Position numbers and translations under genes: made by a program | Shown: one piece after another, positions 27,103 through 57,507 of the stretch | Numbering within the stretch: position 1 is the first letter of the stretch | Layout of the letters: each line of letters opens with the position of its first letter | The notes under the pieces: model-generated | What the model was told of the DNA's origin: nothing | Databases searched by the model: none | The model's input: only the letters and a program-made list of their open reading frames with translations | NCBI GenBank assembly: GCA_029448655.1 | Contig: JACCLO010000011.1 | Location: forward strand, 1-64,000 | Reading direction: 5' to 3' | Length of the DNA: 64,000 nt | Origin: Wolfiporia cocos | Lineage: Eukaryota; Basidiomycota; Agaricomycetes; Polyporales; Phaeolaceae

Positions 27103-27802
27103 TATGAATAGAATTCGCTTTCGCCCCCGCCCTCTTTGAGGGTCTGGGATTTTTTCTTCTTAGGGGTTTTTGTCGCCGTCTGCGCACCCCTGCTCGCCGC
27201 CAGGCAGCGGGGTATCCTTAGTGGGCTCTGGGGGATCACCGCCTTCGGGCAAATAGCCGGACCGTAGGCTTAAGCGGAACCGGGGACTAGCTGACAAGCT
27301 TTTCCCCATATGTTGGGAATCGATGGCAACGGTGTAAACTCTTGACCAGGCCGGAGACGACCTTCTCGCCTATCCCCAGGTGTACAGGGGCCACTCTATT
27401 TAGAGTTGGGATGGTGGGCACGAGTTGCCCTGCCTAGAACCGCTGCCGATACGGCTTCAGAATGATAGAGTTCTGGCCTTGGCGCCCTCTAAGTCCCTCA
27501 GGGCATGGGTTTGGTTTAAACACTGGCAGCCACCTAACTGGAGTGAGGCGTGGGCACATGCGGGGTGTAATACCCCAAATCCTGCATTCCCAGGCGTCAA
27601 GGGAAGACGACCTGCTGTATCCTCCACCTGGTAGCGTGAGAGAGACGCAATCCAGTCGCCAACACTAACTCCGGTCGAGGGCGGAGCGCCCATTGACGCC
27701 GGAGGATAAGCGCACGACACATCAAGAAGCGACGATAAGCCCTGACAGAAGACCGCGTGAATTTCCACTAGAATAGCTTACTTAGACTTCTTCTACGTAG
27801 TC
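27103..27802 (+). other. E leader with priming site and TGACAA hairpin
   Basis: The 700-nt untranslated leader starts with the putative self-priming site. At 27282-27307 a hairpin has outer stem GGGGA/TCCCC, a 2x2 pyrimidine internal loop, inner stem AGC/GCT and loop TGACAA. The same plan occurs in the leaders of families 1 and 2. Short ORFs in it are antisense or overlapping artefacts. Confidence 0.65.
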
Positions 27803-28618
27803 ATGCCGAAAGCACCACGTTTCACGGTCACTCCGAGAAACGCCGCTACGGGGGAGCGCGAGGAATGGCACATTGCCTCCTCCAAATCGCTCGAAGACCG
27901 CATTTCCGCGGTCACAGCCCCAAAGCGGGGAAAGTCCCGAAAGGGCCAAGACGTCTTCTATAGGAAGCCGAACCCTGACCCAGAGGAGATCCAAAGGGTC
28001 AACCACGAGGCCGCCCTCGCCGATATTAGGCGGAAGAAGCTCGACAAGCTTTTCCGACAGAAGGAGAAGCTCGAGGCTCGGATCCAAAAACAGAGCCTGG
28101 ATCAGCTGATCGCCAAGGCGGCCAGGAAGAGGGTTGAGGATGAGAGAATGGTGAGGAGTTTTCGGGAGCGAATCCAGCCCCCAAAGAAGTCGTTGTTGGA
28201 AAGAGTGGAGGAGCTCAGGATGCCGGCCGAGTGGGTCGAGAAGCGGGGTCTTGTGAACCCCAAGGACGTCCATTGCACGGAGAAGAAATGGGACTGGTTC
28301 TTGGACGTCAACAAGCAGATGAACGCCACCCACAAGAACCTTTTCCGGCTATGGAAAGTCCCTGACACAACCACCAGGGCCCCCATAATAGCGAAATTCA
28401 CCACACTAGTCACCAATTTCGACGATCTCTCCACACACCTGGAGCAAAGGGTCCGTCAGGATTCCATGAAGAACGAAGATCTCCGCCGCCTCGAAAAATA
28501 TCTCAGGAGGGTGGAACACGTTTTTGGAGACCTAGACGTTAAACAGCACGTTACGTACTTAAAGACGCATCTAGTACATAGCGGTCTCGACTTCGACCTT
28601 GGGAAACCCCAGCTGTAG
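27803..28618 (+). CDS. ORF1 of element E, unknown function
   Basis: A 271-residue protein starts at the first ATG after the leader and ends 100 bases before gag. It is highly charged. Residues 1-60 are basic and probably disordered, 65-130 are predicted helical with many Lys/Arg/Glu (LDKLFRQKEKLEARIQKQ), and 150-260 look like a compact helical domain ending in DFDLGKPQL. I do not recognise a domain, and an ORF in this place is not part of the standard Ty3/gypsy plan. Family-1 elements have an ORF of similar size, composition and position with no clear sequence match. A nucleic-acid-binding or assembly role is conceivable but not shown. Confidence 0.7.
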   Translation: MPKAPRFTVTPRNAATGEREEWHIASSKSLEDRISAVTAPKRGKSRKGQDVFYRKPNPDPEEIQRVNHEAALADIRRKKLDKLFRQKEKLEARIQKQSLDQLIAKAARKRVEDERMVRSFRERIQPPKKSLLERVEELRMPAEWVEKRGLVNPKDVHCTEKKWDWFLDVNKQMNATHKNLFRLWKVPDTTTRAPIIAKFTTLVTNFDDLSTHLEQRVRQDSMKNEDLRRLEKYLRRVEHVFGDLDVKQHVTYLKTHLVHSGLDFDLGKPQL

Positions 28619-28718
28619 TAGATAGAAAGTCCTGGAAAGGCATTATTTCTTGGTGCATGGCATTGATTGCAAAAAGTCCTGAAAGGCATTTAAGTCCTGA
28701 AAAGGCACCTTTTTTTTC
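28619..28718 (+). other. ORF1-gag spacer with three AGTCCTGAAAAGGCA-like repeats
   Basis: Three copies of a 16-18 nt word (28627-28644, 28674-28690, 28692-28708) have a CC...GG stem around TGGAAA, TGAAA or TGAAAA, recalling the TGACAA/TGAAAA hairpins of the other families. Confidence 0.6.
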
Positions 28719-31010
28719 TTGAATTATCGTTTAAGGAAGAAAACAACTCAAGCTGACGAATACTGTTCAGCAATGGTGTCTTACACAATCGTCCAAGGCG
28801 CTTTGTACAACACCCACAAGGTGGCTACGGCCTACCGCCCCGCCGTCGGCAAGCACGCGTGGCCCGGAGAGCAAACCTGCTTGATGGACTACCTGCGAGT
28901 CGTATTCGGCATCAGAGTTAGGGGGAGTGTCACCTCCTTCAACTCAATTCCGGCGCATGTGCACCCATTCCTAAACATGAACCATACGGCGTACATCAAG
29001 TACTACGGGGAAGATTCGACTAGGAACCACATATCGTGGTGGAGGTGGGACAATTACTGTACCGCCATCCCCCTGTCAGACCTCATAGTCCTGTATGGTG
29101 ACGTCCACTGGTACTCGGAAGAAGAAGCATCGCCGCGCACGAGAGCCGCCAGGCTCTTCAACACGGAGACACCCGTACGCCGCGCAGTCGTCACCCCTGA
29201 AGGCAGCGAGACTCCACGACCGGAGGAAACAATCAACACGGAGCCCCTATTTGGGATGCTCCCCGATCTCCTCCCTTCCTATGAAAGGAGGACTCTGGAA
29301 ATCATCGTGCAGCCGGAAAGGAGCGAAAACAAACTGATGGGAAGGTTGCAGCGCACTCTGGAAGTGCCCGCCTCAGACGAAGTTCTGCAGGTGGGAAAAG
29401 AAGCGTACAGAGAGGCGCTGTACCAAGCCAAGAACCATCTCTACAGCAACCTCGCGGCTTACAAAGGCCGGGTGGACACGGATTTGGAAATGGTCTGGAA
29501 TAAGACCAACCAAATTCGGAGTCACAACCAGGTGCTTCAAAACAGAATCGAAGCACTAGAGGAAGCGGAGAGTTTGCGGCAACAACTGGACACCCTTTCC
29601 GAAAATTGGTTTGTCCGCATAGAAAAAGATATCGCAGTACTGCAAAAGCGTCCGGCAGCCCCAACCGCGGGACCCAGCGGTGCCCAGGTCACGGCACTAA
29701 TTAATAGAATTGACCAACTCGAAGCGGAGTTAACCGCTCTAAAAAATGCACCGGCAGCCGCGCCAGCAGCTGCCACAACGGTCAACTTCCAACAGACCAA
29801 ACCGACTCAGCCACCGAAGTTCTCGGGCCCTAAGGACTCCATCTCATAGAAAGAATGGATCCAGAAAATGGGCATGTATTTCGCAGACGCCAAGGTGACC
29901 ATCGAGGAGGACAAGGTTCGCCAAGCCCTGCTACGGCTCACGGGCGAGGCCTACCAGTACATGTCGCCGGTAGTTGATAAAATCGCCGCCGGACAAACCT
30001 CGGGGCACACCTGGAAAACGTTTGCGGAAACAATTGAGAAGGTGTACGGCAAGAAGACGGACAAGGAGATTTCCGAAAAGGAGATTGAAGGGTACTTCGG
30101 AGACGAAGGGAAAAAGAAGCTCCAATCGGACTTCTTCTCTTGGGCACAGAAGCTCAGGACCCTGGCTCGCCTGGCCGAGACTGACAACAAAACGTTGTTC
30201 AGCCACATCAAACGGATCCTCCCGGAAAAGGTGCAAGAGACCCTCGCTACCTTGGAATCGGTGCCCGGCTTCACAATGCCGACCGACTGGGAGGTTTACC
30301 TCGATATGGCCATTGACCTCTACAAGAGGCAATACGCGGATAAGCTCAAAGGCAAGATCTTTAAGGAAGAAAAGAAGAAGGAGTCGTCGGGGTCTGGCAA
30401 GACCACCGACAAAGCTACGTCGAAGCCTGCCAAGGCTGATGACAAAGGCAAAGGCAAGGCAAAGGAAACCGGCTCTTATGGAAAGGACTGTCGCAAGCAC
30501 CCTGGACAACACAAATGGGGCGACTGTCCTGAGAACCCGAAGAACAAGCCGAAGGAAGCCAAGCCGGCCAGTAGTGGAAGCGGAACGACGAAGCCGACAG
30601 GCTCGTCGAGCGGAACGCAACAGTCGGGCCAGAAGAAATTGGACCCGAAAAAGAAATACAAGGTCCGAATTGTCAGCACCCAGGAACTGGTGACTGACGA
30701 TGAAGATGAGTCCCCCCAAGCCACCGTAGGGACCATCCAGACCAACGTTCCGAAACAACCAGAGGTGGTTCCTCTGGCCCCCACTACGCGCATCAGCGAT
30801 GAGGAGCAAAGCAGGAGTTCGGTGCGAACGACTGAAAGCACCAGCCCCGTCCAGACCCAGTCGACTGGTTCGACTTCGACTGCGCCTACACCGTCGGGCG
30901 ACTCCATCAGGACACATCTGCCCTGGCTTCGCAAGCGGATAGCCGATTCCGCAAACACCCTGGGCATCTACGGAAGCTCTGCCTCGGGTTTTCCCACCGA
31001 GCACATGTGA
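28719..31010 (+). pseudogene. Gag of element E, interrupted by an amber stop
   Basis: One frame runs from 28719 to 31010 with a single internal TAG at 29847-29849. Before it lie a compact N-terminal region, a coiled coil (about residues 220-345) and an Ala/Pro linker. After it comes the capsid-like core (KEWIQKMGMYF..., matching QEWVEKMGLYF in family-1 gag), a Lys-rich part and a zinc-knuckle variant near 30490, C-x2-H-x3-H-x4-C, where the second Cys is His. Family-1 gag reads straight through the same place, so the stop is best seen as a mutation; regulated readthrough is the alternative. The start could also be the ATG at 28772. The stop TGA overlaps the pol ATG at 31010. Confidence 0.8.
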
Positions 31011-31921
31011 TGACCTGCCCACTTGTGCTCCCACGTAATTTTAGTCCCGTACCCACTGTAAAGAGTGTATTCGAGTCAATGTATCATATTTTTGGCAATG
31101 ATGCGCGCGACTTCGCTCGATCTTTCCGTGTCGAAGTAACACTCTGGGTATATGGGCAAAAAGTGCAGGCTCTGGCTTTAATCGACAGCGGCGCAACCAT
31201 ATCGATCATATCACAACGATTGGTCGATAAACATAAGCTGGTCACCGACAAATTAGCGTTTCCTATTACGGTTACAAACGCAGACGGAACAGAAAACGTC
31301 GCCGCCCGCTTAACGCAATCAGTAAAACCATTCATGCAACATGGCACACACAAGGAAAAAATAGGTCTGATGGTCATGCACCTAGAACCAGACCTAATCC
31401 TTGGCTATGACTGGTTACGTCTCCACAATCCTACCTTTGACTGGAGGAAAGGAGAAATGGAATATGCGCGCTGTACACACGACCAACCTTACGCCAGAAA
31501 AAAGGGTAACCGCCCTTCTGAGGAGGAAGCAGTTGAACTCCCAGAAAAGGAAATCATCGAAGTAAATTCGATTTGGGACACTCCCGTGGACATATTAGGA
31601 GAGGAGGACCCCGAAAATCCTTTGATCGCTTGGGTGGCAACCCTTGACGACGAGGAAATGAACCTACTGACACAATTGGTAGCCGAGGTACTTGACAAAG
31701 ACCTCAACGAAGCAGACGACCAGGAGGAAAACACACCACCAATCGACATTGAAAAATGGCGATCGTTAGTGCCCGAACAATACCAAGAGTATGGGCCAAC
31801 GGTGTTCTCACAAAAGGCATCAGAGAGGATGCCGGAACGGAAGCCCTGGGATCACGCCATAGTGCTTGAACCAGATGCGCAGCGTCCCCCCCGGTAAAAC
31901 CATACAAAATGTCTCCCCAGG
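31010..31921 (+). pseudogene. Pol of element E, protease part only
   Basis: Starts at ATG 31010, overlapping the gag stop (TGATG), which suggests reinitiation. It carries LIDSGAT (aspartic protease) about 60 residues in and LILGYDWL further on, then an acidic linker and the pre-RT segment ending in RMPERKPWDHAI. At 31890-31896 a run of seven C is one base short of what keeps frame with family-1 pol, giving a stop at 31895. The conserved segment before the RT continues in the shifted frame to 31921, where family 2 is inserted. Confidence 0.82.
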
Positions 31922-33011: not shown

Positions 33012-34423
33012 TTACCCCCGCTTTAGGTTTCATCGTCCCTGATGAAACTATTCCTCATTGTGTACGTCCCAAGAGCGGTATAACGCGTGATGACGAAGTG
33101 TCAAATGCCGTTATGGTGCTGCTTCAATTTGTCAATTGAACAGGGATAAATGGGAGTTTCAGGACTTGTGGTGGAACCTGAGCGTGGAAGGCGATTTTAT
33201 TCCTTATAGTGATTTGTAACGCGTGATAGCGAAGTGCTAAATGCCGTTACTAGCGATTATCAACGCGTGATGACCGAAAGGTCAAATGCCGTTGTTAGGG
33301 AGATGTAGTCGTGTTACTAGAGTGTGCTGTCATTGTGCATGCGGATCCTAAGAGGAGGGACTCTCCTGTTATCGCTGAAGGTGTTCTAGTGCCTTTTCGC
33401 GACCTTGGTCGGATTATTGCTTTTGCTTATGACGTTACTCGTAGTAGAAGGCGATATGGAAATGGTCATCATATAGTGCCTTTGAATCTACTTGTAATCT
33501 GTATCTCCAATAGCTTGCCAAGCGTATTAGAGGGTGCATTGTGTCGTTGTACGTATTTCGGATAGCATTGTGCGATATTCCTTAGAGTGAGGGCTTCACT
33601 GTTAGCTCTGGAGATTTTCTAGTGTCTCTTCGAGCCCTTGGGCGGATATGTTGCTTATGCGTAGTACCCATTGAGTGTGACATAGCGGTGCTTTTTCGAC
33701 GTCTATTGCCTAGCGGTGAATGGGATTGCAAGTTCCTTCGTTCGCGTGGCGGGTGTCTTAGGCTTTGTGCTTGTACAGGGGTAATCCTACTTTGTACGAC
33801 TTATGCGGTTTGAACGGTTATTAAAGGACGTCGCCTTGTGAACGTTTATGAGGCGTCGCCTCCCTAGTATCGCAAGTACTAAGCGTGAGACATTTGTCAA
33901 TGCCCATTTGTTACAGGGGTTGTGTCCCCTAGTTAGATTGCTTCTATGTAGCGATCTCTTCGGAGTCGTAAGTTCCGGAATGAAGCTGTGCCTTCGTTGT
34001 TGTGTGCACTATTTATTAACGAGTAGGCTTCTCGTGTAAAACCCCATAGTATAGGTACTAATCATTGTGCATTATGTTTATATGCTTATGATTGTATTCC
34101 CTAATACTGTAGTGTCGTTGCCGTAGTGAGGCCTTATTGGGTAACCGTGAGAACATACATCCTTGTCAGGAGTTGTCTCGTATAGGTGTATCCCGTAAGG
34201 GCTGAAGTCCCATGGTGGCGATGACGGTAGTTTCCAATGTGCTTGTATGTCGTTAAAGTCGTTCTTCGATTGAGTATGACATTGTAAGCGTGGGAACTGA
34301 GATGATCGTTGGGGAAGGGTATATTTCGCTATTGGATAGATAGCTACTATATTCCTATTACAGGGTTGTCGTCCATATACGAATAGGACAGTACGAGCAT
34401 GAATGAGGGTAATCGGGCCTCTT
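33012..34423 (-). other. Family-2 internal region, 3' part (first tandem unit)
   Basis: Starts with the polypurine tract (TTACCCCCGC on + strand) against the LTR. It contains three copies of the AACGCGTGAT...AAATGCCGTT hairpin and two copies of the covarying two-hairpin module, all read on the minus strand. No ORF longer than about 85 codons occurs. It is interrupted at 34423 by the nested copy. Confidence 0.8.
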
Positions 34424-35518
34424 TGTCACAGATTTATCTGGGGCTTACAGCATTTTTCCTACGATTATAGCAATTTACCTGGGATTTATACGTCTAACTA
34501 CAAGTTATCTACGGGTTAACTCCCATTGCCACCACGACAAGCTCTTAACTGGGCTCGTCAACCACATGACCAGCTTACATAACGCTACGGCACCTTCCGG
34601 TCCAATAGCATAGTATAGCTACGTCATACAGGTCTCGCCCGTCAGAGCAAGACCAGCCACGTCATAGATCCTAGATCATAATGATAGGCCGAGCGCGGCA
34701 CGCTCGCATAATAATGTCCACAAGTACAAACAGTGCCTCGCGGCCTTGTACTATTGGGTCGGCCTTCCCGGCTTCCCATCGCCATAAGATCCTAGATCAC
34801 AATGGCACCTCAGGCGCGCCACGCCTTCGCATAATAATGGCAACACGGCCAAATAGCACTATATTAGCACCAAGGCAATATCGCTATAGGCTACGGCCTT
34901 CTCGGCCTCTCACGGACTCGGCGTTCTCCAAGTCCCGGGCTTCTGCCATCACGGCGTTGCCCAAACACCGGTCCTCGCCTCACGGCTAAGACCACCATAT
35001 GTTCCGGTAACCTTCCGGTCCGGACATATCACATGCTACGGTGCCTACTGGCCCAATAGCATTACGACCTCGGCGTTCCGCCTTGGTCAGCACACGATGA
35101 CCGGCCAATCGCCATTATACCTCACGGTATCCGGCAACCGGCATCCCTTATACCCGGGCTGCGCCCGTCTTCACATGTCCATCTAACGATGAGACCACAC
35201 GCTCTCTCTTTCACCATTGGCCCGGCCATTACCGGCGGGTCACGGCCTTTGTAGAGTAGACGCTTCACTTGGTCGCCCTTATGGCAACCAAGCCCACACT
35301 CCTTATCGGGCATGCACTATACAGTAGCACATGACCCGTTAAATATGTGTATATAAGTAGGGCCTTGACGGCCTATAACTTTAGTTCTATTCTTCTCGGC
35401 GTGCGCCGTAGAAGAACTTTCCACCTACTACCGTGCCTGATAACCTCTACCTCACCTCGTCGCCTTAGTTCATCGCAAGGATACTGGCGTGGTGAGTCCC
35501 ACAGAGCCATCTGTGTCA
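34424..35518 (+). repeat. 5' LTR of the nested family-2 element
   Basis: TGTCACAGATTTATC...GCCATCTGTGTCA. TATATAAG at 35350-35357 precedes the self-primer word (35382-35394) by about 30 nt. Confidence 0.92.
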
Positions 35519-35532
35519 TAAGAATAGAACTA
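35350..35532 (+). promoter_or_regulatory. Family-2 TATA box, self-primer and priming site
   Basis: TATATAAG (35350-35357) is followed by TAGTTCTATTCTT (35382-35394). The reverse complement of this 13-mer is AAGAATAGAACTA, found exactly at 35520-35532, one base after the LTR end. No TGG-type tRNA binding site is present there. This fits Tf1-type self-priming. Confidence 0.8.
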
Positions 35533-37456
35533 CCTACCCCCCTGCGCCTCCTTAACTGGTGGCGCCTGGGTTTTTCCTCCAACAGGTGTCTGAGATAGCG
35601 CAGGGGCCGCTACTCTCCTGCAAAGGGGATGTATGCTCCGTGGTTGCGGATTGGGATACATCGGCGGCGGGCTTAGCGGCCTGCTGCCACCCAGTGGGGC
35701 GCTGCTTGCCTAATCAGCAGCATGCGTCCTGCGAACCCGGACTCCAGGGTTAAGGAGAGGCGCCGGCTTCCTGACAAGGTTGCTGGTGCCAGCGGTTGAG
35801 ACCCGCCTATTGGGAAAAGGGGACCGTCTGCCTGTGTGCGCGCAGCCCCCTGTCTTGGCAAGCCCTGTTCAGGGCCCCAACACTACCAGTAGGATCCCCA
35901 TAGGGATATGCGCTTCGGCGTATTCCCTTAGTTGGGTGTGGGAATCTTCCAAAGCCGCCCCCCAGGCGTAAGGGGCCCGCTTGGGATCTCCTTTGGGGAA
36001 TCCAAGTGGTGAGGCGGTGAGACTCGCAAGGTCAAACCGGCCGAGGTCACTCGCGGTAGCCAATAGCGTAAGTCCTACGGGCAGCTCGGCGTGCGAGCCT
36101 GGGTTAAACGGATTTGGGGCCCCGTTGGAAGAGGATCGCGTAGCCCACCATCTTTGATGTGTGGAGCGCTGATCTCTCGCGATCTTTGATCGACAATGGT
36201 TTTTTAGCCCTGATGTGACACCCAGGTGGCTATAGATGGCAAGCCTTACCACTAAAGCGTGGACCGGTCGCGGTGTAATACTGCGACCACTTTCCAGCTC
36301 ATCTCCGCGAGGAAATGGGCTGTGTATCCTATTCCCAACCATGTGACCCAGCCTGTCAAGCGCTGGCAGTCACCGACTCTCTTTCTAGAAGGAAGTCGCG
36401 CGCTTCGATGAAGACACCTGTCGGCTAAATTCCGCGCGGCGTCCTGACAAGGGCGCCCCTAACCATGCCCTCGTTCTTCTTGTGTTAGACATGACCACTC
36501 AGCGTTGATCGCTGATGACGAGCTCTCTTTCAGGTACCCTGGTATCCCAGTCCATAAGTAGATAAATATGTAGTTTTAGTGGCGGCTCCTAGTAAATAGC
36601 AATACTTGTATTAGCTTAGAAACCGTCCAATAGCATCTGTATTCGCCTCTGGAAATCCTGCGTCACCTGCTGGTTCCCAGGTTATCTAGCCTGGTTAAGG
36701 TCGCCTATGTACATAAAAGGCAACCTTTACGTCTTACGGGTACACTTAGTCAATCGAAGAACGATACTAGTACCTGTTCCCTTAGACGTAGGATCGCGTA
36801 CGCTTGGCAAATATATGCTTATAACTATTATTACTATGGGAATGCCTAAGTACCAAGTCGATTAGGATTCACATAATCCGTCGGCGCCCGTTTGACTTCG
36901 GTCTTCGCTCCTGAAAAGGGGATTCGGGTTATTTGAGCATCTGTCATTTGGTCACATGTCATAAGAACCTTTGAACGGGGGCACCCCTTTCGGTAATGGA
37001 ATTCCTGACAAGGAAATTACCATCCGTTTGGGAAGAGACGTCTGACAAGCGTCTATAAATAATTGGGTACAGCGCTGTTTCCACCAGCCACCCATGTACA
37101 AACAGATCGCAACAAGATTACTTCATTGAATCTTGCAATCTGGGTTAGAGGAAAGGAAAACAAGGGACACACGCTATTGATACGCGTTCCCTTGAAGTGT
37201 AGCGGAGGCCGCAAGGCTTCTAGAATCACACTTCATTCGGCATTCTCGCACAATCGCCGAATCTACACCGGTTTCCACACCGGTTCCCCCCTGTATTGAA
37301 ATCGACAATTTCGCACGCCACTCGCAAAATTCGTCACGAGGCTCGCTACCTCATTTATGATTTCACTTCGATTCAACTTTTCTCTGTGGGGAGAATAACC
37401 GAATTCGAAAAATACACCTTAGCAATTCAATGCGATCGTCCGCAAAAGGTCTCGAA

Positions 37457-37499
37457 GAAGCACTCGAAAACTTCCAGAGATAACAAGGGAGCCCCCCTT
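37457..37499 (+). repeat. Two-hairpin module, copy 1
   Basis: Stem GAAG/CTTC with loop CACTCGAAAA, linker CAGAGATAAC, then stem AAGGG/CCCTT with loop AGCCC. Confidence 0.8.
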
Positions 37500-38765: not shown

Positions 38766-38808
38766 GAGACACTAGAAAATCTCCAGAGCTAACAGTGAAG
38801 CCCTCACT
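38766..38808 (+). repeat. Two-hairpin module, copy 2
   Basis: Stem GAGA/TCTC with loop CACTAGAAAA, linker CAGAGCTAAC, then stem AGTGA/TCACT with loop AGCCC. Confidence 0.8.
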
Positions 38809-38997
38809 CTAAGGAATATCGCACAATGCTATCCGAAAACTGTACAACGACACAATGCACCCTCTAATACGCCTGGCAAGCTATTGGAGCACAGATTACT
38901 AGTAGACTCAAAGGCACTATATGATGAACATTTCCATATCGCCTTCTACTACGAGTAACGTCATAAGCAAAAGCAACAATCCGCACAAGGTCGCGAA

Positions 38998-39040
38998 AAG
39001 GCACTTGAACACCTTCAGCGATAACAGGAGAGTCCCTCCT
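38998..39040 (+). repeat. Two-hairpin module, copy 3
   Basis: Stem AAGG/CCTT with loop CACTTGAACA, linker CAGCGATAAC, then stem AGGAG/CTCCT with loop AGTCC. Confidence 0.8.
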
Positions 39041-39099
39041 TCCAGGATCCGCGTGCACAATGACAATACACTCTAGTAACACGACTACAATTCCCAAAC

Positions 39100-39310
39100 A
39101 ACGGCATTTGACCTTTCGGTCATCACGCGTTGATAATCGCTAGTAACGGCATTTAGCACTTCGCTATCACGCGTTACAAATCAATAAGGAATAAAATCGC
39201 CTTCCACGCTCAGGCTCCATCCACAAGTCCTGAAACTCCCATTTATCCCTGTTCAATTGACAAATTGAAGCAGCACCATAACGGCATTTGACACATCGTC
39301 ATCACGCGTT
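39100..39310 (+). repeat. Three copies of the AACGGCATTT / ATCACGCGTT hairpin
   Basis: Copies at 39100-39131, 39145-39175 and 39280-39310 have the same arms AACGGCATTT and ATCACGCGTT. Between them are different complementary pairs: GACC/GGTC, AGC/GCT and GAC/GTC, with loops TTTC, ACTTC and ACATC. Confidence 0.85.
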
Positions 39311-39380
39311 ATACCGCTCTTGGGACGTACACAATGAGGAATAGCTTCATCAGGGACGATGAAACCTAAAGCGGGGGTAA

Positions 39381-45085: not shown

Positions 45086-45124
45086 TTACCCCCTCTTCAG
45101 GTTTCATTGTCCCTAATGGAACGA

Positions 45125-48100
45125 TTACTTCCCCGTGGAGCCGAAACCACCAGTACCGCGCTCGGATTTAATCTTTTCAAAGTAAGATTTTCCGTGTAGC
45201 GTAATGTGTGGGTCCTTAGCAACTTCGCAGATGAGCTGGGCAATCTTATCACCGGCCCGAATATCGATAGATATGTCGGAGTGATTCCGGAGAATGATGA
45301 TTACTTCGCCTTGATAATCGTGGTCGATAACGCCACCCATTACGTCTATGCCTTTTCGGGCAAGACTAGAGCGGGGGGCGATACGTCCGTAAGTGCCGAA
45401 AGGTACCTGGATCTTCAGTTTGGTGTTGTATTCTGTCTGCCCGTGAGCTGGCAGAACGTCGCCTGTTGCAGTGTACAGGTCAAACCCAACCGAGTCCTTG
45501 GTTCCTTTTTCCGGCATTCGGCCGCCTTCACCGACTACGATTTTCAAATCCGCGTTTTGGTTAATGTTCGCTGACATCCATCCCCCGTCGGGGTGTCTAA
45601 CCATGCGTTGCTTAGGGTCCTTCGCAAATTCTTCGCGATACTGCGGCCAGTCGTCTGGCCACGTGCATTCGTCGGCTTCCCAGTCGTCGCTGTCAGGGTC
45701 GAAGACGTGAACTGCTTCTTTCCTTCTAGCTGATCGCCTGAGGGGGACATCCTGCATGGGAATAGCGTGTGAAGCCTTGTATTCTTGCAGAATGTCATAT
45801 GCCGTGTCGAGATCGGCTTCGCGTACCCAGGAGTCGTCATTGATACCAAATCCTTTCCATCGGATTCTGTATTCAACTCTTCCTGCGCGGAGGCGATGAT
45901 CTAAGATCTTCTCAACTTCCCATAATTCCTCGCCGTCGACCATTTCTGGTTGAGGCTCTGGTTTTTTCTGATGCACCGGGTCCTTGTACATGACCAACTT
46001 GGAAGCGTGAAATACTGGGTGATAGGCCCTGTATTGCTCGTCCATATATACCCTAAAGGTGACCGGCGATAATTGTTCAATTATCTTAAATGGTCCCAGA
46101 TAGCGTGGACTAAGACTTCTTTCGGAGTCTTGCCAGCTACGGGCGTCAACGAGGACTTTGTCGCCGACTTTAAATGGTACCGAGCGCTTATGTTGATCGT
46201 AGTACCAAGACCAGCGTTCGGCAGCCAATTTCATTGCTGCCTTAGCTTGTTCTTGTGCTGACCATCGTTCGTAAGCAATGACATTTAGGTCCGTGTATGG
46301 TGTTGGACGTAAATTCGTAGGTCCTGCATTAGGGTGCCTTCCTAGTTCGACAAAGAATGGGCTATTCTTTGTTGTCTCACTAGCCGCGTTGTTGTACGCG
46401 AATTCAGCCGTTGGGAGAAACCATGACCAGTTATCCTTTTGAATAACATCGATGTAACATCTAAGATATTGTTCCAGGATCTGGTTAACTCTCTCCGTCT
46501 GGCCATCCGCTTGCGGGTGATAGGCGGTTGTCATTGACCGTTGGATTCCCAATTGCTCACACCATCCCTTGAATAAGGCGGCTGCGAATTGCGGGCCTCT
46601 ATCCGAAATGATTTGTTTCGGAAGTCCGTGGTTCGGATAAATCCGAAGGTACAGGAGGTTCGCTAATTCTTTTGCCGTTATCTTGTCTGACGTGGGAATG
46701 AAGTGTGCTCGTTTGGTAAGCCGGTCCACTATTACCATAATAGCATTGAATTGTTTCAATTCGCCGCTGGGCGGTAGGTGGACGATAAGGTCAATTGTGA
46801 CGGTGTCCCAAGGTGCTTCCGGAACTGGGAGCGGTTGCAGGGGTCCGTACGGGGTCTGGTTGTGGTTCTTCATGCGTTGACATGTGTCACAACCTTCCAC
46901 GTATTGCTTTACCATCGTGGTCATTCCAGGCCACCAGTAATTACGTGATAGAAGTTCATAGGTCTTCCATCGTCCGAAGTGTCCGGCCGTCACATGGTCA
47001 TGATGTAACTCCAGAATCTTCGTGCGCAATTCTTTAGGCTCTTTTGGAACGTACACTTTTCCTCGTCTGAGGAGTAATCCGGCCTCCATGTTCCATTCCT
47101 GGAGATCTTTACCGAATTCCTTGGGACCACTTTTCAGTAGTTCCTGGTAATCCTTGGTAATTTGATCGTCCATGAGGGCTTGTCGGATTTGTCGGAGAAG
47201 GTCCTCGTCGCCTGATTGTATCTCCTGCTGTGACGCTTCTAGCGCCCTAACCGTAAAGTATTCCGGTTTCAGCAAAATTTGATCGCGATTGTCGAGTTCC
47301 ACCCCCTCTTCATGGTCTGGCCTCCGTGACAGAGGATCAGCCGTGAGCATTGTTTTACCGGGTTTGTGGCACATGGTGAAGTTGAACCTTGTCAGGTAAA
47401 GACTCCAACGTGCCTGTCTCCGGGTTAGCCGTTGTGCCGATTTGAAATATGTCAGATTGAGATGATCCGACCATACTTCAAACTTGTGTGGATGTCCTTC
47501 GAGGTAATGTCTCCATTCCTCTAGAGCGCGGATGATTGCGAGCAATTCCTTGTCGTAAATCTCATAGTTCCTTTCGGGTGCTGATAGAGATTTCGAGTAA
47601 AAAGCTACCGGGTGCCAGAGCTTATCCTCCGAAGAGTATTGTGATAGCACCGCACCAGTTGCGTAATCGGAAGAATCCGCTTCCACGCGGAACGGGGACT
47701 CCTGATCTGGGATCCGGAGTATTGGAGCCGATGTGAAAGCTTCCTTGAGAGTTTGGAAGGCTTCCGCTTGTTCGGGTCCCCAGTTCCATTGCGTGTTTTT
47801 CTTGGACAGTTCGGTTAACGGCTTAACCACTTTGGAGAAGTCTTTAATGAACCGCCGGTAGTAGTTGGCGAAGCCAACAAAGGCCTGGACGTCCTTCACC
47901 TTGGCAGGTGTAGGCCAGTCCATTACGCCGGCTACCTTCTTAGGGTCCATTTCGACCTTTCCTTTGGAAATGATCATTCCCAGGTATTCAATACTGCTTT
48001 GTTCGAAGAAGCACTTTTCAGGCTTCGCGAACAAGTCGTTGTCTTGCAAGATTTGTAATACTTGCTTGACGATACGACGGTGTTCCAGCAGGTCGTTTCC

Positions 48101-49660
48101 GAACACAAGGATGTCGTCTAGGTAGACAATGACCTTTCCTTCTCTGATAAGGTCACCTAGGATATCGTTCATCATGTGTTGGAACGTGCTGGGTGCATTA
48201 CAAAAACCGAAGTACATGACTACGGCTTCGTAAAGGCCGTTAGGCGTAATGAATGCGGTCTTCCATTCATCTCCCTCCTTGATTCTTACGTTGTTGTAGC
48301 CCCAACGCAAGTCGAGCTTCGTGAATATCGAAGCCTGGCTAAGCTTATCGATAAGCTCGTCTATGCGTGGGAGAGGGTACCTGTTTTTAATGGTCAAGTC
48401 GTTTACTTTTCGGTAATCGACTACCATTCGGGCTCCGCCGTCTTTTTTAGGGACGAAGAAGACCGGACTCGCGATCGGGGATTTCGAGTGTCGGATGTAG
48501 CCCTTCTGTAACTCTTCCTGAATCCACTGATCTAGCGAGTTCGCCTCCTGAGGAGACATCTTGTATGCCTTACTTGGGGGCGGTAGTACCGCGTCATCGG
48601 GAAAGTCGATGGCGTGGTCGTATGGTTTCCGTTCGGGCATCCTTTCGGATGCGCGTTGAGAAAATACCGTGGGACCAAACTCCTGGTATTCCTCTGGAAC
48701 CAAGGATTTCCATTTCTGGAGATCCGCATCTGTCAGGAATTCATCGTCCGACTTCTCCGTTATCGACTGAATGGCATCGATAAGGAGTTCCGTTCCTTCG
48801 TCAAGGGTGTTCACCCAAGCGACAAAGGGATTCTCCGGCTCCTCTAAGCCGAGAAAATCTATTGGAAAGTCATTGATGATCTGATAGATGTTGCGGGGTT
48901 CGATTTCGTCTTCTTCCTCAGAAATCGAAACCCGTTTGCCATGTTTGCATTTTTCCGTACACCGATATGTGAAGGTTCCTTCCGGCCAATTGAAGTCCGG
49001 GTTGTGTTTCAGGAACCAGTCATATCCGAGGATCACATCCGCATTCTGTATGTCCATTACGTACAAGAATTCGGTGGACTTGTGTTCCTCGTGCACCATA
49101 TAAGCTTTTACTGCCATATTGATATTACCGGCGGTATTAGAGGTACCGTCGGCGTTACGAATCTCGAGAGGCGAAGGTAGTTTCTGAGTGACTAACTTTT
49201 CCTCGTGGACGAGTTTCTTATCAATGACGCTTATTGATGCACCGGTGTCGATTAATGCCATGGCGTTAACTTTCTTTCCATATACCCACAGTTCCACTTC
49301 GATAGAGAACGATTTATTGTCGTCTCGAGAATCGTTTCCATGTACATTATACAAAGTGAAAAACTTTAGCGCGAGCGGGTCAGGATAGAAGTATTGTACA
49401 GGAGGAGCACGTGTAGCTAGTGTCCTTGTCCTCCGGGCAAAGTCCATTGCCGAGTTACCGAATATACCGAGATGGGATACCGGGTGACGTACGACCGCCT
49501 TATCTTCCCACAAGATAAGGGGTCTCTGTGAAGCCTCTTCGTAGAGGTGCGCTTCTTCGGGGCGCTGTACACTCCCAGCCGCTGCGGGGCTGGTGTGTTC
49601 TTCACAGAACGTCTTCGAGACGTGTGGTTGGGGCGAGGGGAACCGAGATGGTCCCGACAT
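45125..49660 (-). CDS. Pol of element B: PR-RT-RNaseH-IN-chromodomain-dUTPase
   Basis: This 1511-residue polyprotein copies the RNA and integrates the cDNA. In order: aspartic protease LIDTGAS (about residue 137); RT with TKLDLRWGYNN and YLDDIL (about 513); RNase H (EADSSDYATGA, YDKELLAI); integrase with an HHCC zinc region, D, D and E (TIDLI, SDRGPQF, QTERVNQ); a chromodomain of about 50 residues (EVEKILDHR, YRIRWKGFG, DDSWVREADL) that would target chromatin; and a complete trimeric-type dUTPase with all five motifs (SVGFDLYTA, PRSSLA, GGVIDHDYQGEV, RAGDKIAQL, GTGGFGSTGK). It overlaps gag by 59 bases in another frame, so expression needs a +1 shift or reinitiation. The chromodomain places it in the Tf1/sushi-like chromoviruses. 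Confidence 0.96.
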   Translation of the reverse strand: MSGPSRFPSPQPHVSKTFCEEHTSPAAAGSVQRPEEAHLYEEASQRPLILWEDKAVVRHPVSHLGIFGNSAMDFARRTRTLATRAPPVQYFYPDPLALKFFTLYNVHGNDSRDDNKSFSIEVELWVYGKKVNAMALIDTGASISVIDKKLVHEEKLVTQKLPSPLEIRNADGTSNTAGNINMAVKAYMVHEEHKSTEFLYVMDIQNADVILGYDWFLKHNPDFNWPEGTFTYRCTEKCKHGKRVSISEEEDEIEPRNIYQIINDFPIDFLGLEEPENPFVAWVNTLDEGTELLIDAIQSITEKSDDEFLTDADLQKWKSLVPEEYQEFGPTVFSQRASERMPERKPYDHAIDFPDDAVLPPPSKAYKMSPQEANSLDQWIQEELQKGYIRHSKSPIASPVFFVPKKDGGARMVVDYRKVNDLTIKNRYPLPRIDELIDKLSQASIFTKLDLRWGYNNVRIKEGDEWKTAFITPNGLYEAVVMYFGFCNAPSTFQHMMNDILGDLIREGKVIVYLDDILVFGNDLLEHRRIVKQVLQILQDNDLFAKPEKCFFEQSSIEYLGMIISKGKVEMDPKKVAGVMDWPTPAKVKDVQAFVGFANYYRRFIKDFSKVVKPLTELSKKNTQWNWGPEQAEAFQTLKEAFTSAPILRIPDQESPFRVEADSSDYATGAVLSQYSSEDKLWHPVAFYSKSLSAPERNYEIYDKELLAIIRALEEWRHYLEGHPHKFEVWSDHLNLTYFKSAQRLTRRQARWSLYLTRFNFTMCHKPGKTMLTADPLSRRPDHEEGVELDNRDQILLKPEYFTVRALEASQQEIQSGDEDLLRQIRQALMDDQITKDYQELLKSGPKEFGKDLQEWNMEAGLLLRRGKVYVPKEPKELRTKILELHHDHVTAGHFGRWKTYELLSRNYWWPGMTTMVKQYVEGCDTCQRMKNHNQTPYGPLQPLPVPEAPWDTVTIDLIVHLPPSGELKQFNAIMVIVDRLTKRAHFIPTSDKITAKELANLLYLRIYPNHGLPKQIISDRGPQFAAALFKGWCEQLGIQRSMTTAYHPQADGQTERVNQILEQYLRCYIDVIQKDNWSWFLPTAEFAYNNAASETTKNSPFFVELGRHPNAGPTNLRPTPYTDLNVIAYERWSAQEQAKAAMKLAAERWSWYYDQHKRSVPFKVGDKVLVDARSWQDSERSLSPRYLGPFKIIEQLSPVTFRVYMDEQYRAYHPVFHASKLVMYKDPVHQKKPEPQPEMVDGEELWEVEKILDHRLRAGRVEYRIRWKGFGINDDSWVREADLDTAYDILQEYKASHAIPMQDVPLRRSARRKEAVHVFDPDSDDWEADECTWPDDWPQYREEFAKDPKQRMVRHPDGGWMSANINQNADLKIVVGEGGRMPEKGTKDSVGFDLYTATGDVLPAHGQTEYNTKLKIQVPFGTYGRIAPRSSLARKGIDVMGGVIDHDYQGEVIIILRNHSDISIDIRAGDKIAQLICEVAKDPHITLHGKSYFEKIKSERGTGGFGSTGK

Positions 49661-51635: not shown

Positions 51636-51736
51636 TGTCTTAGATTCTTAAGAAGGGATTGGTTTTGAAAGCTGCGACTTTCGTTATAGATCACACTCGC
51701 ACTCTATTTCAGAGTTAAAAGATGATAGTATTTCTA

Positions 51737-52660: not shown

Positions 52661-53679
52661 GAGAAACGAAGTTTCCCAGTGATACGTCCAAGAACAGGAA
52701 TGAAAGGGATTATGTAAGGTAGGGTAGTGGACTCCTTTTCAGGAGCAAAGAAGGTGTACTACGGGGCATAATTACTCTTATGTTGCGCGCAAACCCTGTG
52801 CCGAGACGGCGCGGATATTCGCATGACCCTAACGGTCAGAGGCGCCGACTCCAGGGGTAGAGTTGCTGACTGCCAGGCCGGTTCCTGGGTCAGATGATTG
52901 GGAATCGGATACACGACACCGCCCCGGAGGGACGATGCCGGAAAGTGGCTGGGATTTTACATCCCTTAGCCTGTCCATGCTTCAACAATGAGGTTGCCGT
53001 CTATAGCCACATGGGTGTCACATCAGGGCTAAAAAACCACTGTCGATCTAAGATCGCGAGACAGCAGCGCTCCACATCCCGAAGGAGTGGGCCACGCGCT
53101 TCTCTTCCAATGGGGCCCCAAATCCGTTTGACCCATGCTCGCACGCCGAGCTGCCCGGAGGACTTATGCTATTGGCTACCGCGAGTGACCTATGGCAGGG
53201 TGATTTTTTACGTCACCCCCCTCACTGCTTTTCCCATAACGGGTTCAAAGCAGGTCCCTTACGCCTGGGAGGCGGCTTTGGAAAATTCCCATGCCATCAT
53301 AATGATGACCCTGTGGATAGTGATGGGGCGCTGAACAACGCTTGCCATGACAGGGGGTTGGGCGCACACAGGCAGACCGTCCCCTTTTCTCCACAGGCGG
53401 GTCTTAACCGCGCATAGTCCAAGCTTGTCAGCGAGGACCATGTCTCCTTGACCCTGGAGTCCGGGTTAGGTAGGCCTCCTGCCTAAAAAGGTGGTGTGGC
53501 TTCCCTGGTTGCCAATCCTCTGCCGAGGATGGCGATGTATCCCCCAGATCTCAACTATCACCCCTAACTCTTTGTCAAGAGTAGGGATGTGCGCAGCAAC
53601 GAGCAATAGCCCCTGTAGGATAGAAACCCAGGCCCAAGCGCAAGCGCAAGGGCGGGGGTAGGGGGGAGATTTGTTCTTA
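52661..53679 (-). other. Leader of element B with priming site
   Basis: About 1 kb of untranslated leader. The priming site (53667-53677) matches the self-primer word at 53802-53812. TGACAA hairpins occur at about 53415-53437 and 53553-53575; the latter has arms ACTCT/AGAGT where D has an unrelated pair. Much of the leader aligns with family-2 42109-42780. Confidence 0.8.
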
Positions 53680-54378: not shown

Positions 54379-54762
54379 TATCGCTGAAGGTGTTCTAGTG
54401 CCTTTTCGCGACCTTGGTCGGATTATTGCTTTTGCTTATGACGTTACTCGTAGTAGAAGGCGATATGGAAATGGTCATCATATAGTGCCTTTGAATCTAC
54501 TTGTAATCTGTATCTCCAATAGCTTGCCAAGCGTATTAGAGGGTGCATTGTGTCGTTGTACGTATTTCGGATAGCATTGTGCGATATTCCTTAGAGTGAG
54601 GGCTTCACTGTTAGCTCTGGAGATTTTCTAGTGTCTCTTCGAGCCCTTGGGCGGATATGTTGCTTATGCGTAGTACCCATTGAGTGTGACATAGCGGTGC
54701 TTTTTCGACGTCTATTGCCTAGCGGTGAATGGGATTGCAAGTTCCTTCGTTCGCGTGGCGGG
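54379..54762 (-). other. Family-2 internal remnant between B and D
   Basis: These 384 bp continue the second family-2 internal region from TATCG onward (same as 33369-33751) up to GCGGG, where D is inserted. They hold part of the covarying hairpin modules. Confidence 0.88.
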
Positions 54763-55461
54763 TGTCACAGATTTGGGACATGCCACTATTTTTCCCGTAT
54801 TTTTACCTATTTATCTGGTATTTCTACGACCTTGTAGACATTTACGCTGCTAAGCGCCCGTCTACACGTACACGCAAACAAACAACACGTACACAACGCG
54901 GTATACGTCCACCTGTCATAACAACACGTACATAACACGTTTGTACGCGTCAATGACTCAGCGGACTAACCTCCGGTGTCACGCGCCTTACTCATATCCC
55001 GGTACCGGGCTATGTCAGTACAATTGGATAAGCGGCCCGCTCGTTATCACATGCCAATGCCCTTACGATTACTCATATCCCGATACCGGTATATAAGAAT
55101 CACATGCATGGCTTACTAACGTAGCTACAGCCACTTCCACAACGCGGACCTACGGTCCAAACAAACGTTCTTACTGGTGCGGCCATTACCGGCGCACATG
55201 GTCTATTGTAGTTTACGACTTAGCTGTATTAGTTATGTCTGCGCACAGACCGTCTAACTGTTTGGCTCCTCTTCGAGTAACCAAACAAAGCATGTATATA
55301 AGTAGGGCTATCACTGCGGATAAGCCTTAGATTTGTTCTCTGCATTCGCACAGTCACATATCATCTCTGCTTGCGCCCACTAGTCTCCTCACCAACCTTC
55401 TGCAACTCCTTCAAGTCGCCTACAAGGTTATAGTGTGAGTCCCACAGTCTAGTCTGTGTCA
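54763..55461 (+). repeat. 5' LTR of element D
   Basis: TGTCACAGATTTGGG...CTAGTCTGTGTCA, 699 bp, with scattered differences from the B LTRs. Confidence 0.93.
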
Positions 55462-55474
55462 TAAGAACAAATCT
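55295..55474 (+). promoter_or_regulatory. Family-1 TATA box, self-primer and priming site
   Basis: TATATAAG (55295-55302) lies 34 nt before AGATTTGTTCT (55329-55339). The exact reverse complement AGAACAAATCT is at 55464-55474, two bases after the LTR. The word differs from that of family 2, yet each family matches its own site. Confidence 0.8.
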
Positions 55475-56473
55475 CCCCCTACCCCCGCCCTTGCGCTTGC
55501 GCTTGGGTCTGGGTTTTCATCCTACAGGGGTATATTACTTGTTGCTGCGCACATCCCTTTCTGCCTGACAAGGCGATTGGGGTGATAGTTGAGATCTGGG
55601 GGATACATCGCCATTCTCGGCAGAGGATTGGCAACCAGGGAAGCCACACCGCCTTTTTAGGCAGGAGGCCTACCTAACCCGGACTCCAGGGTCAAGGAGA
55701 CATGGTCCTCGCTGACAAGCTTGGACTATGCGCGGTTAAGACCCGCCTGTGGAGAAAAGGGGACGGTCTGCCTGTGTGCGCCCAACCCCCTGTCATGGCA
55801 AGCGTTGTTCAGCGCCCCATCACTATCCATAGGGTCATCATTATGATGGCATGGGAATTTTCCAAAGCCGCCTCCCAGGCGTAAGGGACCTGCTTTGAAC
55901 CCGTTATGGGAAAAGCAGTGAGGGGGGTGACGTAAAAAATCACCCTGCCATAGGTCACTCGCGGTAGCCAATAGCATAAGTCCTCCGGGCAGCTCGGCGT
56001 GCGAGCATGGGTCAAACGGATTTGGGGCCCCATTGGAAGAGAAGCGCGTGGCCCACTCCTTCGGGATGTGGAGCGCTGCTGTCTCGCGATCTTAGATCGA
56101 CAGTGGTTTTTTAGCCCTGATGTGACACCCATGTGGCTACAGACGGCAACCTCATTGTTGAAGCATGGACAGGCTAAGGGATGTAAAATCCCAGCCACTT
56201 TCCGGCATCGTCCCTCCGGGGCGGTGTCGTGTATCCGAATCCCAATCATCTGACCCAGGAACCGGCCTGGCAGTCAGCAACTCTACCCCTGGAGTCGGCG
56301 CCTCTGACCGTTAGGGTCATGCGAATATCCGCGCCGTCTCGGCACAGGGTTTGCGCGCAACATAAGAGTAATTATGCCCCGTAGTACACCTTCTTTGCTC
56401 CTGAAAAGGAGTCCACTACCCTACCTTACATAATCCCTTTCATTCCTGTTCTTGGACGTATCACTGGGAAACT
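55462..56473 (+). other. Leader of element D
   Basis: A 1-kb leader with the priming site. A TGACAA hairpin at about 55559-55576 has arms TC(T)GCC/GGCGA where B has ACTCT/AGAGT. A second at 55705-55726 has outer stem GTCC/GGAC, a 2x2 internal loop and GC/GC around TGACAA. CTCC/GGAG arms around TGAAAA occur near 56399-56412. ORFs in it are antisense artefacts. Confidence 0.8.
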
Positions 56474-57406
56474 TTGTTTCTCATGAAGGCTGCACTTTCT
56501 AGAATCATGCCCCGCGTTACCCGTCGCACTCGTGGCTCCTCCACTGCCCCCTACGTTAAGCCGGCGAAGCGGTCCCTTCTCAGCCGCATCGACACCACCG
56601 ACATTCCTCGGGCAGAGGACGTCACGTACACTCTTCCTGTAAAGGAAGACTACACCGGGAAGCTCCATCTTTGGGAGATTCCTGTCCACATGCCAAAGCA
56701 TATCGCTGAGGCTGGGAAACCCGCTCCTCGACCTCCCAAACCAGTTCCACTTGCCAAGCGCATCTGGACAGAGGAAGAGAAGCTAGCGCAATCCATTACC
56801 GCCATGGAGAACCTTATCGAACTCCGCGAACTCAACAAGCTCAAGCTCGCCCGCGATAAGCTGAATAAGCGAATCGCCGCCAAACAAGCCGCCAAGGAAG
56901 CCAAGCAAGCAGCTTCTTCACTGGCCCTCCGTCTCTCCAGCCCGGCGGCCGGACCTTCCGTTCCGGCCAACCACAAGATTCTCGACCCTTCCCTCGTCTT
57001 CGGGAAGAAGAAGCCTCTTCAAGCATGCGATCAAGTTATTCCCATGCTAGAAGGCACTCTCACTCGTCTCACTCCTCTCGCCAACCACCCCCCTAATTAC
57101 CCAGGCTTCCATATGGAAAACGACATGCGTTTCCATACTATGGTAGTAGAATTAGAGGACTTGGTGGATAACGTAAAGGATAGAGCGAGACGGGGGAGGA
57201 TCACCAATAGAGACTGGAGAATTATGAAAAAGTATTGCAAACAACTCGGCAATATTTCCTTTTTGGATTGGCGTACGGACTTGGCTCGTATCGTAGCAGA
57301 ATGCGTAGCGCTACAAATTACTTTTGCCTTCGGTGTAACACCACCTGACAAGGTGGCAGGGCCCTCGACTACTACGGTAGAAGAGGATATACTCGCGATT
57401 GTGTAG
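56474..57406 (+). CDS. ORF1 of element D, unknown function
   Basis: 310 residues, starting MFLMKAAL; the second ATG (56483) corresponds to the start used in B. The product differs from B ORF1 by only a few substitutions, with no indel after the start, which suggests selection or recency. The same three-part layout applies: basic Pro-rich N-terminus, charged helix, helical C-terminal domain. Its stop lies 101 bases before gag. The CCACC-TGACAA-GGTGG hairpin lies at 57341-57356, within the last 25 codons. Confidence 0.8.
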   Translation: MFLMKAALSRIMPRVTRRTRGSSTAPYVKPAKRSLLSRIDTTDIPRAEDVTYTLPVKEDYTGKLHLWEIPVHMPKHIAEAGKPAPRPPKPVPLAKRIWTEEEKLAQSITAMENLIELRELNKLKLARDKLNKRIAAKQAAKEAKQAASSLALRLSSPAAGPSVPANHKILDPSLVFGKKKPLQACDQVIPMLEGTLTRLTPLANHPPNYPGFHMENDMRFHTMVVELEDLVDNVKDRARRGRITNRDWRIMKKYCKQLGNISFLDWRTDLARIVAECVALQITFAFGVTPPDKVAGPSTTTVEEDILAIV

Positions 57407-57507
57407 TAGCAATACTATCGTCTTTTAACTCTGAAATAGAGTGCGAGTGTGATCTATAACGAAAGTTGCAGCTTTCAAACCCAATCCCTTCTTAAGAATC
57501 TAAGACA

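What the first reader, a model, noticed from the sequence alone, without database searches (positions are those of the whole stretch)
27282..57356. Hairpin family with a fixed TGACAA/TGAAAA loop and unrelated stems in three retrotransposon families
Seen: loop TGACAA is enclosed by perfectly or nearly complementary arms at 27282-27307 (E), 35759-35790, 36438-36457 (GGCGTCC/GGGCGCC), 37002-37031 (TTCC/GGAA inside GGTAAT/ATTACC), 37046-37064 (AGACG/CGTCT), 39252-39269 (TTCAAT/ATTGAA) in family 2, and 55559-55576, 55705-55726 and 57341-57356 (CCACC/GGTGG) in family 1. At 41431-41460 the outer family-2 copy has TGAAAA where the nested copy has TGACAA. Stems share no sequence; only loop and pairing are kept. 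This is what a selected RNA (or single-strand DNA) structure looks like. I know of no named motif of this kind. A packaging, Gag-binding or translational role is inference.
Basis: partly seen in the sequence, partly recalled or inferred. Interest (0 to 1): 0.88.

Follow-up and report, generated by a model that had tools for sequence, protein, structure and literature searches.

The report
Loop-conserved RNA hairpins across fungal retrotransposons
Related retrotransposons of one fungus carry many small RNA hairpins that keep the same kind of loop while their stems change, in the best-studied case in matched pairs, which is what a repeated landing site for a recognising protein would look like.

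Summary
With no motif chosen beforehand, TGACAA is the loop most enriched for complementary arms in 27000-64000 and first of 1,976 hexamers for stem energy (z -9.3). It beats dinucleotide shuffles (12 hairpins, shuffle maximum 3); the wider loop class beats synonymous-codon shuffles. The loop rule is mainly Y-GNMA-R, on the RNA-sense strand (28 sense, 4 antisense). In a leader hairpin shared by two families, 16 sequences with 12 different stems pair at 191 of 191 cells. In 30 copies of the family without coding domains the loop's U, G, A, A vary at 0.8%, its middle bases at 5.2%, flanks at 2.0%. That family shares LTR ends, post-LTR region, polypurine tract and leader with the coding family. 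Best reading: dispersed cis-acting recognition hairpins for packaging or replication, perhaps bound by Gag or the basic ORF1 protein; the partner is inferred. Parts of another element family of this genome and of ten distant Gypsy elements lack the signal, so it looks lineage-specific.

The parts
27188..27212 (+). family 3 leader hairpin A, loop C-GCCA-G
   Evidence: homologous site in the C2 relative has loop CGTCAG and a paired stem
27282..27307 (+). family 3 leader hairpin B: GGGGA / 2x2 CT-TT / AGC [TGACAA] GCT
   Evidence: relative has TGCAAA on an almost entirely different stem (alignment gappy there)
29142..29157 (+). family 3 coding hairpin AGAGC[CGCCAG]GCTCT
   Evidence: loop not kept in the relative
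30386..30410 (+). family 3 coding hairpin, loop TGGCAA
   Evidence: relative has TGAAAA and a G:C to C:G double change
30419..30443 (+). family 3 coding hairpin, loop TGCCAA
   Evidence: loop not kept in the relative
30586..30608 (+). family 3 coding hairpin, loop CGACAG
   Evidence: same loop and stem in the relative
31620..31655 (+). family 3 coding hairpin, loop TGGCAA
   Evidence: loop not kept in the relative
31685..31705 (+). family 3 coding hairpin, loop TGACAA, other stem in the relative
35603..35639 (+). family 2 leader hairpin A, loop TGCAAA, aligned with family 1 hairpin 55552-55584
35759..35790 (+). family 2 leader hairpin B: 9-bp helix, 2x2 TT/TT, CC/GG, TGACAA
   Evidence: covariation
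36438..36457 (+). family 2 hairpin, loop TGACAA
36991..37026 (+). family 2 hairpin, loop TGACAA/TGAAAA
37864..37894 (+). family 2 hairpin, loop TGGAAA
38218..38248 (+). family 2 hairpin, loop TGACAA
38490..38507 (+). family 2 hairpin, loop TGACAA (15 of 180 pair cells broken among copies)
39249..39273 (+). family 2 hairpin upstream of the 3' LTR, loop TGACAA; loop changed in some copies
53567..53582 (-). family 1 leader hairpin A, second stem version ACTCT/AGAGT
55552..55584 (+). family 1 leader hairpin A, stem version GCC/GGC, loop TGACAA
55701..55730 (+). family 1 leader hairpin B, homologous to 35759-35790
56398..56411 (+). family 1 hairpin CTCC[TGAAAA]GGAG, upstream of the first ATG of ORF1
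56632..56649 (+). family 1 hairpin TCTTCC[TGTAAA]GGAAGA in ORF1; outermost pair lost in the minus-strand copy
57341..57356 (+). family 1 hairpin CCACC[TGACAA]GGTGG in ORF1
58176..58189 (+). family 1 hairpin ACTC[CGACAG]GAGT
59097..59121 (+). family 1 hairpin, loop TGCAAA
59302..59333 (+). family 1 hairpin, loop TGGAAA
59358..59375 (+). family 1 hairpin GGCTTC[TGGCAA]GAAGCC
60500..60515 (+). family 1 hairpin GCATC[CGAAAG]GATGC
61232..61264 (+). family 1 hairpin, loop TGCCAA
61745..61775 (+). family 1 hairpin in pol, loop TGACAA
34424..40475 (+). family 2 element: LTRs 34424-35518 and 39381-40475; no Pfam domain in the four ORFs tested
54763..64000 (+). family 1 element (5' LTR 54763-55461, ORF1 56405-57406, gag-like 57496-59547, pol from 59438, runs off the window)
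   Evidence: Pfam was run on the minus-strand copy of pol
26800..31921 (+). family 3 element fragment (leader, ORFs 27761-28618, 28701-29849, 29850-31010, protease from 30836); low end set by me

Best explanation
These are cis-acting RNA hairpins, capped mainly by a GNCA/GNAA tetraloop on a pyrimidine-purine closing pair (above all U-GACA-A), spread along the genomic RNA of one lineage of Ty3/Gypsy-type elements: at least two in the leader and about 1.3-1.6 per kb overall. Shown: enrichment, strand preference, loop constraint, compensatory stem changes in the leader, and presence in an element without coding domains that shares the replication signals of a coding one. Inferred: a protein made by the elements reads the cap. 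The likeliest reader is Gag (one CCHC knuckle in family 1) or the extra ORF1 protein (pI 9.8-9.9), with the leader pair starting and the dispersed copies spreading assembly on the right RNA, that is, dispersed packaging signals that a non-autonomous partner also uses.
For: Unbiased loop scan and stem-energy scan, TGACAA first of 1,976 hexamers. Dinucleotide shuffles. Synonymous-codon shuffles in ORFs: 15 Y-GNMA-R loops with arms >=3 against mean 1.58, maximum 7 of 400 shuffles. Strand: one combined rule gives 28 sense and 4 antisense in families 1-3, 8 and 0 in a family 3 relative. Covariation: 13 rows, 12 pairs, 155 of 155 cells paired, 7 pairs with a both-sided change (4 in the family 1 row, 3 in L068), 0 of 500 shuffles as good; with more variants 191 of 191 cells. 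Loop constraint in 30 copies (Fisher p 2e-9 middle bases against U,G,A,A). Shared LTR ends, post-LTR region, polypurine tract and leader of families 1 and 2. Genome counts: CCTGNMAAGG 5,477, reversed-loop control 700, unpaired-arm control 1,051.
Against: No binding, packaging or probing data. An 8.5 kb stretch from the RT of another element family downstream (L069) and ten distant Gypsy loci show nothing, though these are mostly pol and hold no proven leader. In the family 3 relative TGACAA itself has no strong stems (rank 85 of 212); only the CGNNAG class leads (z -3.4). By the rule, 4 of 8 family 3 hairpins are not kept there (29147, 30428, 31635, 31750). One family 2 hairpin (39258) has loop changes in some copies, and 55 of the 61 both-sided changes in family 2 copies sit in one hairpin. 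Purine-pyrimidine closed GNNA loops are also enriched in sense (11 of 175 with arms >=3), so the closing-pair rule is loose. For yeast, the Ty1 packaging signal maps near the 5' end, and most of the internal Ty3 RNA is dispensable for retrotransposition when proteins are given in trans (PMC4974528, passages and section 7 read).
Confidence: 0.56

Rival explanations
1. Selected RNA hairpins read by a host protein (export, localisation to assembly sites, stability or escape from silencing), not by Gag or ORF1.
For: The same sequence evidence; nothing here names the protein; ORF1 gave a low-confidence model (mean pLDDT 51.2).
Against: Under the rule the signal is absent from the stretch of another element family (L069: 0 and 0) and from window 1-26000 (0 sense, 1 antisense), so a general host code is unlikely; a host factor captured by one lineage remains possible.
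Confidence: 0.23
2. The palindromes are made by a mutational process, such as reverse-transcriptase fold-back or template switching at TGACAA, not by selection.
For: Arms of family 1 leader hairpin A are replaced wholesale between two subfamilies while downstream DNA is nearly identical.
Against: Fold-back copying should yield perfect Watson-Crick arms. Here stems carry G.U pairs, an internal loop of fixed place and stepwise G.U intermediates, and loop bases U, G, A, A are held while the middle two drift.
Confidence: 0.06
3. General selection for stable RNA structure or RNA-RNA contacts (dimerisation, tetraloop-receptor packing), with no protein reader.
For: Loops resemble GNRA-type caps; CGNNAG is the second class; CTTCGG loops have arms >=2 in 6 of 15 sense cases (p 2e-4).
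Against: Within the Y-GNMA-R set the third loop base is C in 20 of 28 hairpins, not the purine of GNRA; CTTCGG reaches arms >=3 in only 1 of 15; U-A closure (23 of 28) is commoner than C-G (5 of 28), opposite to plain stability.
Confidence: 0.11
4. Chance, or picking after the fact.
Against: Unbiased scans and shuffles, genome-wide controls, covariation.
Confidence: 0.01

Closest known systems
Dispersed packaging signals of single-stranded RNA viruses (MS2-type model; PMC6281560, passages read)
   Same: Many stem-loops along the genome share a loop motif while stems differ; the motif is degenerate.
   Different: Here in LTR retrotransposons, with covariation seen in one hairpin; no coat-protein binding shown.
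Ty1/Ty3 packaging determinants (PMC4974528, passages and section 7 read)
   Same: Structured leader downstream of the 5' LTR; Gag with a CCHC knuckle in Ty3.
   Different: Ty1 signals map near the 5' end; here the same cap recurs along the element. The review says packaging sequences of Ty elements are not precisely defined and Ty3 RNA structure is uncharacterised.
Phage P22 boxB / N peptide (PMC12550061, passages read)
   Same: GACA-containing loop of GNRA-like fold read by a peptide; U-A closing pair (recalled).
   Different: boxB is a GACAA pentaloop for antitermination (function recalled); here a GACA tetraloop or UGACAA hexaloop at many places.
dUTPase-bearing chromoviruses of Postia placenta (PosPlaTy3-4; PMC2864245, passages read)
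   Same: Gypsy pol with C-terminal dUTPase; additional ORFs of unknown function occur in the elements drawn there.
   Different: No hairpin family is mentioned in the passages read.
Non-autonomous LTR elements (LARD/TRIM type, recalled)
   Same: Family 2: LTRs, post-LTR region, polypurine tract, no coding domain found.
   Different: Carries the dispersed hairpin series.

Membership tests
Dispersed packaging signals | multiple dispersed stem-loops sharing a loop motif | tested here: met
Dispersed packaging signals | specific binding by the capsid protein | not testable with these tools
   needs a binding assay
Dispersed packaging signals | effect on assembly or RNA choice | not testable with these tools
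   needs particle RNA data
GNRA tetraloop | third loop base a purine | tested here: not met
   C in 20 of 28 hairpins, A in 8 (the rule allowed only A or C there)
boxB of lambdoid phages | pentaloop on a short stem | tested here: not met
   arms pair around 4 or 6 bases, stems of varied length; one family 2 variant at 39258 has an extra A
Any Rfam family | match at gathering score | tested here: not met
   0 matches in 26000-64000
Ty3/Gypsy chromovirus (family 1) | RT, RNase H, integrase and chromodomain in pol | tested here: met
   minus-strand copy
Non-autonomous LTR element (family 2) | LTRs and replication signals without coding domains | tested here: met
   4 of the 5 ORFs of 100 aa or more, 0 Pfam at E 0.1; the fifth is the 3' LTR copy of one tested

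The most novel reading that the evidence does not exclude
A lineage of fungal LTR retrotransposons marks its genomic RNA along its whole length with a multivalent code of Y-GNMA-R hairpins read by Gag or the lineage's extra ORF1 protein, and a non-coding parasite of the lineage bears the same code, beyond the leader on sequence unrelated to its partner, so as to be packaged: a dispersed packaging code in a retroelement, with stems free to drift and the cap held.
Probability: 0.48. Interest if true: 0.9.

Novelty: new variant of a known kind. Interest (0 to 1): 0.8.

Why it matters
How Ty elements select their own RNA is not precisely defined even in yeast (PMC4974528, section 7). A motif with a loop rule, a covarying leader stem, homologous sites across families and a user without coding domains makes the question testable with one binding assay. 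It would also bear on whether packaging signals can be dispersed rather than confined to the leader.

Tried and rejected
ORF1 fold: model of low confidence (mean pLDDT 51.2, pTM 0.21), so no fold search was run; the only profile matches in solved structures up to E 1 were four vimentin chains at E 0.05-0.1. tRNA genes: none in the window. Viral contigs: no related locus. A DNA cruciform was rejected on G.U pairs and strand bias. Coding constraint was rejected: hairpins exceed synonymous-codon shuffles, and the loops at 57346 and 61758 lie in different reading frames. A general GNRA preference was rejected on the C-rich third position. The homology search with the gag-like ORF gave one protein without a name. 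Paper searches in which no listed title or abstract start names such a motif: (open-licence full texts only). Passages were read from PMC4974528, PMC6281560, PMC12550061 and PMC2864245, and section 7 of PMC4974528.
Full report
Setting. The window is the start of contig C3 of a 64.4 Mb genome. Family 1 is a Ty3/Gypsy chromovirus: the minus-strand copy of pol has protease, RT, RNase H, integrase, chromodomain and dUTPase. It has a gag-like ORF with one CCHC knuckle and an extra ORF1 of pI 9.8 (both named by eye, no Pfam match). Family 2 has 1,095-base LTRs at 34424-35518 and 39381-40475 (100% identical) and no Pfam domain in the four ORFs tested. Family 3 (about 26800-31921) is cut short in the window and has ORF1, a gag-like region and protease; its ORF1 is weakly similar to that of family 1 (E 7e-6 for the single comparison).

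The observation. TGACAA occurs 62 times on both strands, 51 contexts after removing copies. A scan of all 4- to 8-mers with at least 4 occurrences, used as loops, ranks TGACAA first in 27000-64000 (9 of 20 de-duplicated contexts with arms >=3; its reverse complement ties, being the same sites). In 1-27000 it is not among the eight best 6-mers; the 5-mer TGACA leads its list there at a modest p of about 1e-3. In sense-oriented pieces 14 of 19 have arms >=2, antisense 0 of 1. Against 500 dinucleotide shuffles of families 1-3 the 12 hairpins (arms >=2) compare with a mean of 0.36 and a maximum of 3; for the class TGNNAA, arms >=3 number 20 against 1.23, maximum 7. With the loop masked and stems scored by energy, TGACAA is first of 1,976 hexamers (z -9.3), the class TGNNAA first (z -8.5) and CGNNAG second (z -5.6) among classes fixed at the first and last two bases; on the antisense strand TGNNAA has z -1.3. 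In the ORFs, 400 synonymous-codon shuffles give a mean of 1.58 Y-GNMA-R loops with arms >=3 (maximum 7); observed 15. For TGACAA alone, arms >=3 number 2 against a maximum of 1.

The loop. Taking one rule (Y-GNMA-R, arms >=3, or >=2 with stem energy <= -10), families 1-3 hold 28 sense hairpins: third loop base C in 20, A in 8; closing pair U-A in 23, C-G in 5. Antisense there: 0, 4 and 0 for families 3, 2 and 1; two of the four are the two LTR copies of one site. Controls under the same rule: window 1-26000, 0 sense and 1 antisense; L069, 0 and 0; ten distant Gypsy loci (48,092 bases), 5 sense and 6 antisense. L069 runs from an RT downstream and the ten loci are 3.7-6.6 kb pieces around RT, so leaders are not tested there. 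Loops outside the rule: third base G or T, 2 of 56 sense and 6 of 93 antisense with arms >=3; purine-pyrimidine closed GNNA, 11 of 175 sense and 1 of 159 antisense, so the closing pair is a preference, not an absolute. In 30 copies of family 2, over 11 hairpins, the loop's U, G, A, A changed in 10 of 1,320 cells (9 of them at the single site 39258), the middle bases in 34 of 660, flanks in 248 of 12,645. Pair cells broken were 32 of 3,303; changed on both sides 61, of which 55 in leader hairpin B and 6 in leader hairpin A.

Covariation. Family 2 35734-36380 is 75% identical to the family 1 leader 55676-56284. In both lies leader hairpin B. MAFFT puts the two in pairing register without help: 12 pairs, 155 of 155 cells paired, 7 pairs with a both-sided change, 4 in the family 1 row and 3 in L068; sliding the partner by 1-3 columns leaves at most 1 such pair. 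With variants (in one search, 54 of 156 places came with letters), 15 equal-length sequences of 11 stems plus family 1 pair at 191 of 191 cells, and the sense strand folds at -20.1 on average against -10.6 for the antisense. Two sequences of another register and one with extra bases were left out of that table; they also fold as hairpins. Leader hairpin A has two stem types in family 1: of 264 genome places with the exact flanks, the hundred or so listed fall into these two with point variants; family 2 has a third stem at the aligned place with loop TGCAAA. Family 3 was compared with a relative on C2 (69% over the alignment; 74% in the best stretch). In the leader, CGCCAG becomes CGTCAG on a kept stem, and TGACAA becomes TGCAAA on an almost entirely different stem, in a gappy part of the alignment. 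In the gag-like region TGGCAA becomes TGAAAA with a G:C to C:G change. Of the 8 family 3 hairpins under the rule, 4 keep the loop class there and 4 do not. TGACAA itself ranks only 85 of 212 hexamers in that relative, where CGNNAG is the first class of 247.

Genome-wide. Among the first 100 listed places of a pinned CTGACAAG pattern, 10 of 59 non-redundant contexts have 2 or more further pairs; with the loop reversed, 1 of 75 (Fisher p 0.0012). Counts for CCTGNMAAGG are 5,477, for the reversed pattern 700, for unpaired arms 1,051; high-copy families must weigh heavily in these.

Reading. Families 1 and 2 share LTR ends, the region after the 5' LTR and the polypurine tract, so family 2 looks like a non-autonomous user of the family 1 machinery. 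It has the leader hairpins and further hairpins on internal sequence without a blastn match to family 1 (matches over 150 bases at E 1e-20). What an element without coding domains must keep is what packaging, reverse transcription and integration need. Hence the packaging reading, which is inference; the reader protein is unknown. The structural claim itself I hold at about 0.95, the packaging role at about 0.5.

Limits. All positive data are from one genome and one lineage. DNA of other fungi was not available except Gypsy pieces in bacterial assemblies that look like contamination. One hairpin carries most of the covariation, and R-scape was not run.

Noticed in passing
34424-40475 and one search places such as C1:4742343, 4747304, 4752265: Family 2 hairpin hits recur at about 4.96 kb, the length of one LTR plus the internal part, on several contigs: probably tandem arrays sharing LTRs.
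   Followed up: no
54379-54766 and 33370-33757: A 388-base piece, 100% identical to family 2 sequence at 33370-33757, lies between two head-to-head family 1 copies: both seem inserted into family 2 sequence.
   Followed up: no
55552-55584 / 53567-53582: Two family 1 subfamilies differ by wholesale replacement of hairpin A's arms; upstream DNA differs by several percent, downstream hardly at all, as if a recombination border lay at the hairpin.
   Followed up: partly
56405-57406 and 27761-28618 (ORF1): A source record named Fusarium falciforme (longest contig 23,865 bases) encodes proteins 99% and 93% identical to parts of the two ORF1 proteins: contamination or transfer.
   Followed up: no
45125-49660 (-): dUTPase at the C-terminus of pol, as in Postia PosPlaTy3-4 (PMC2864245, passages).
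   Followed up: partly
L072-L081: Ten Gypsy-like RT loci sit in bacterial genome assemblies, two with coverage of 0.3-0.5 in the title: probable eukaryotic contamination.
   Followed up: no
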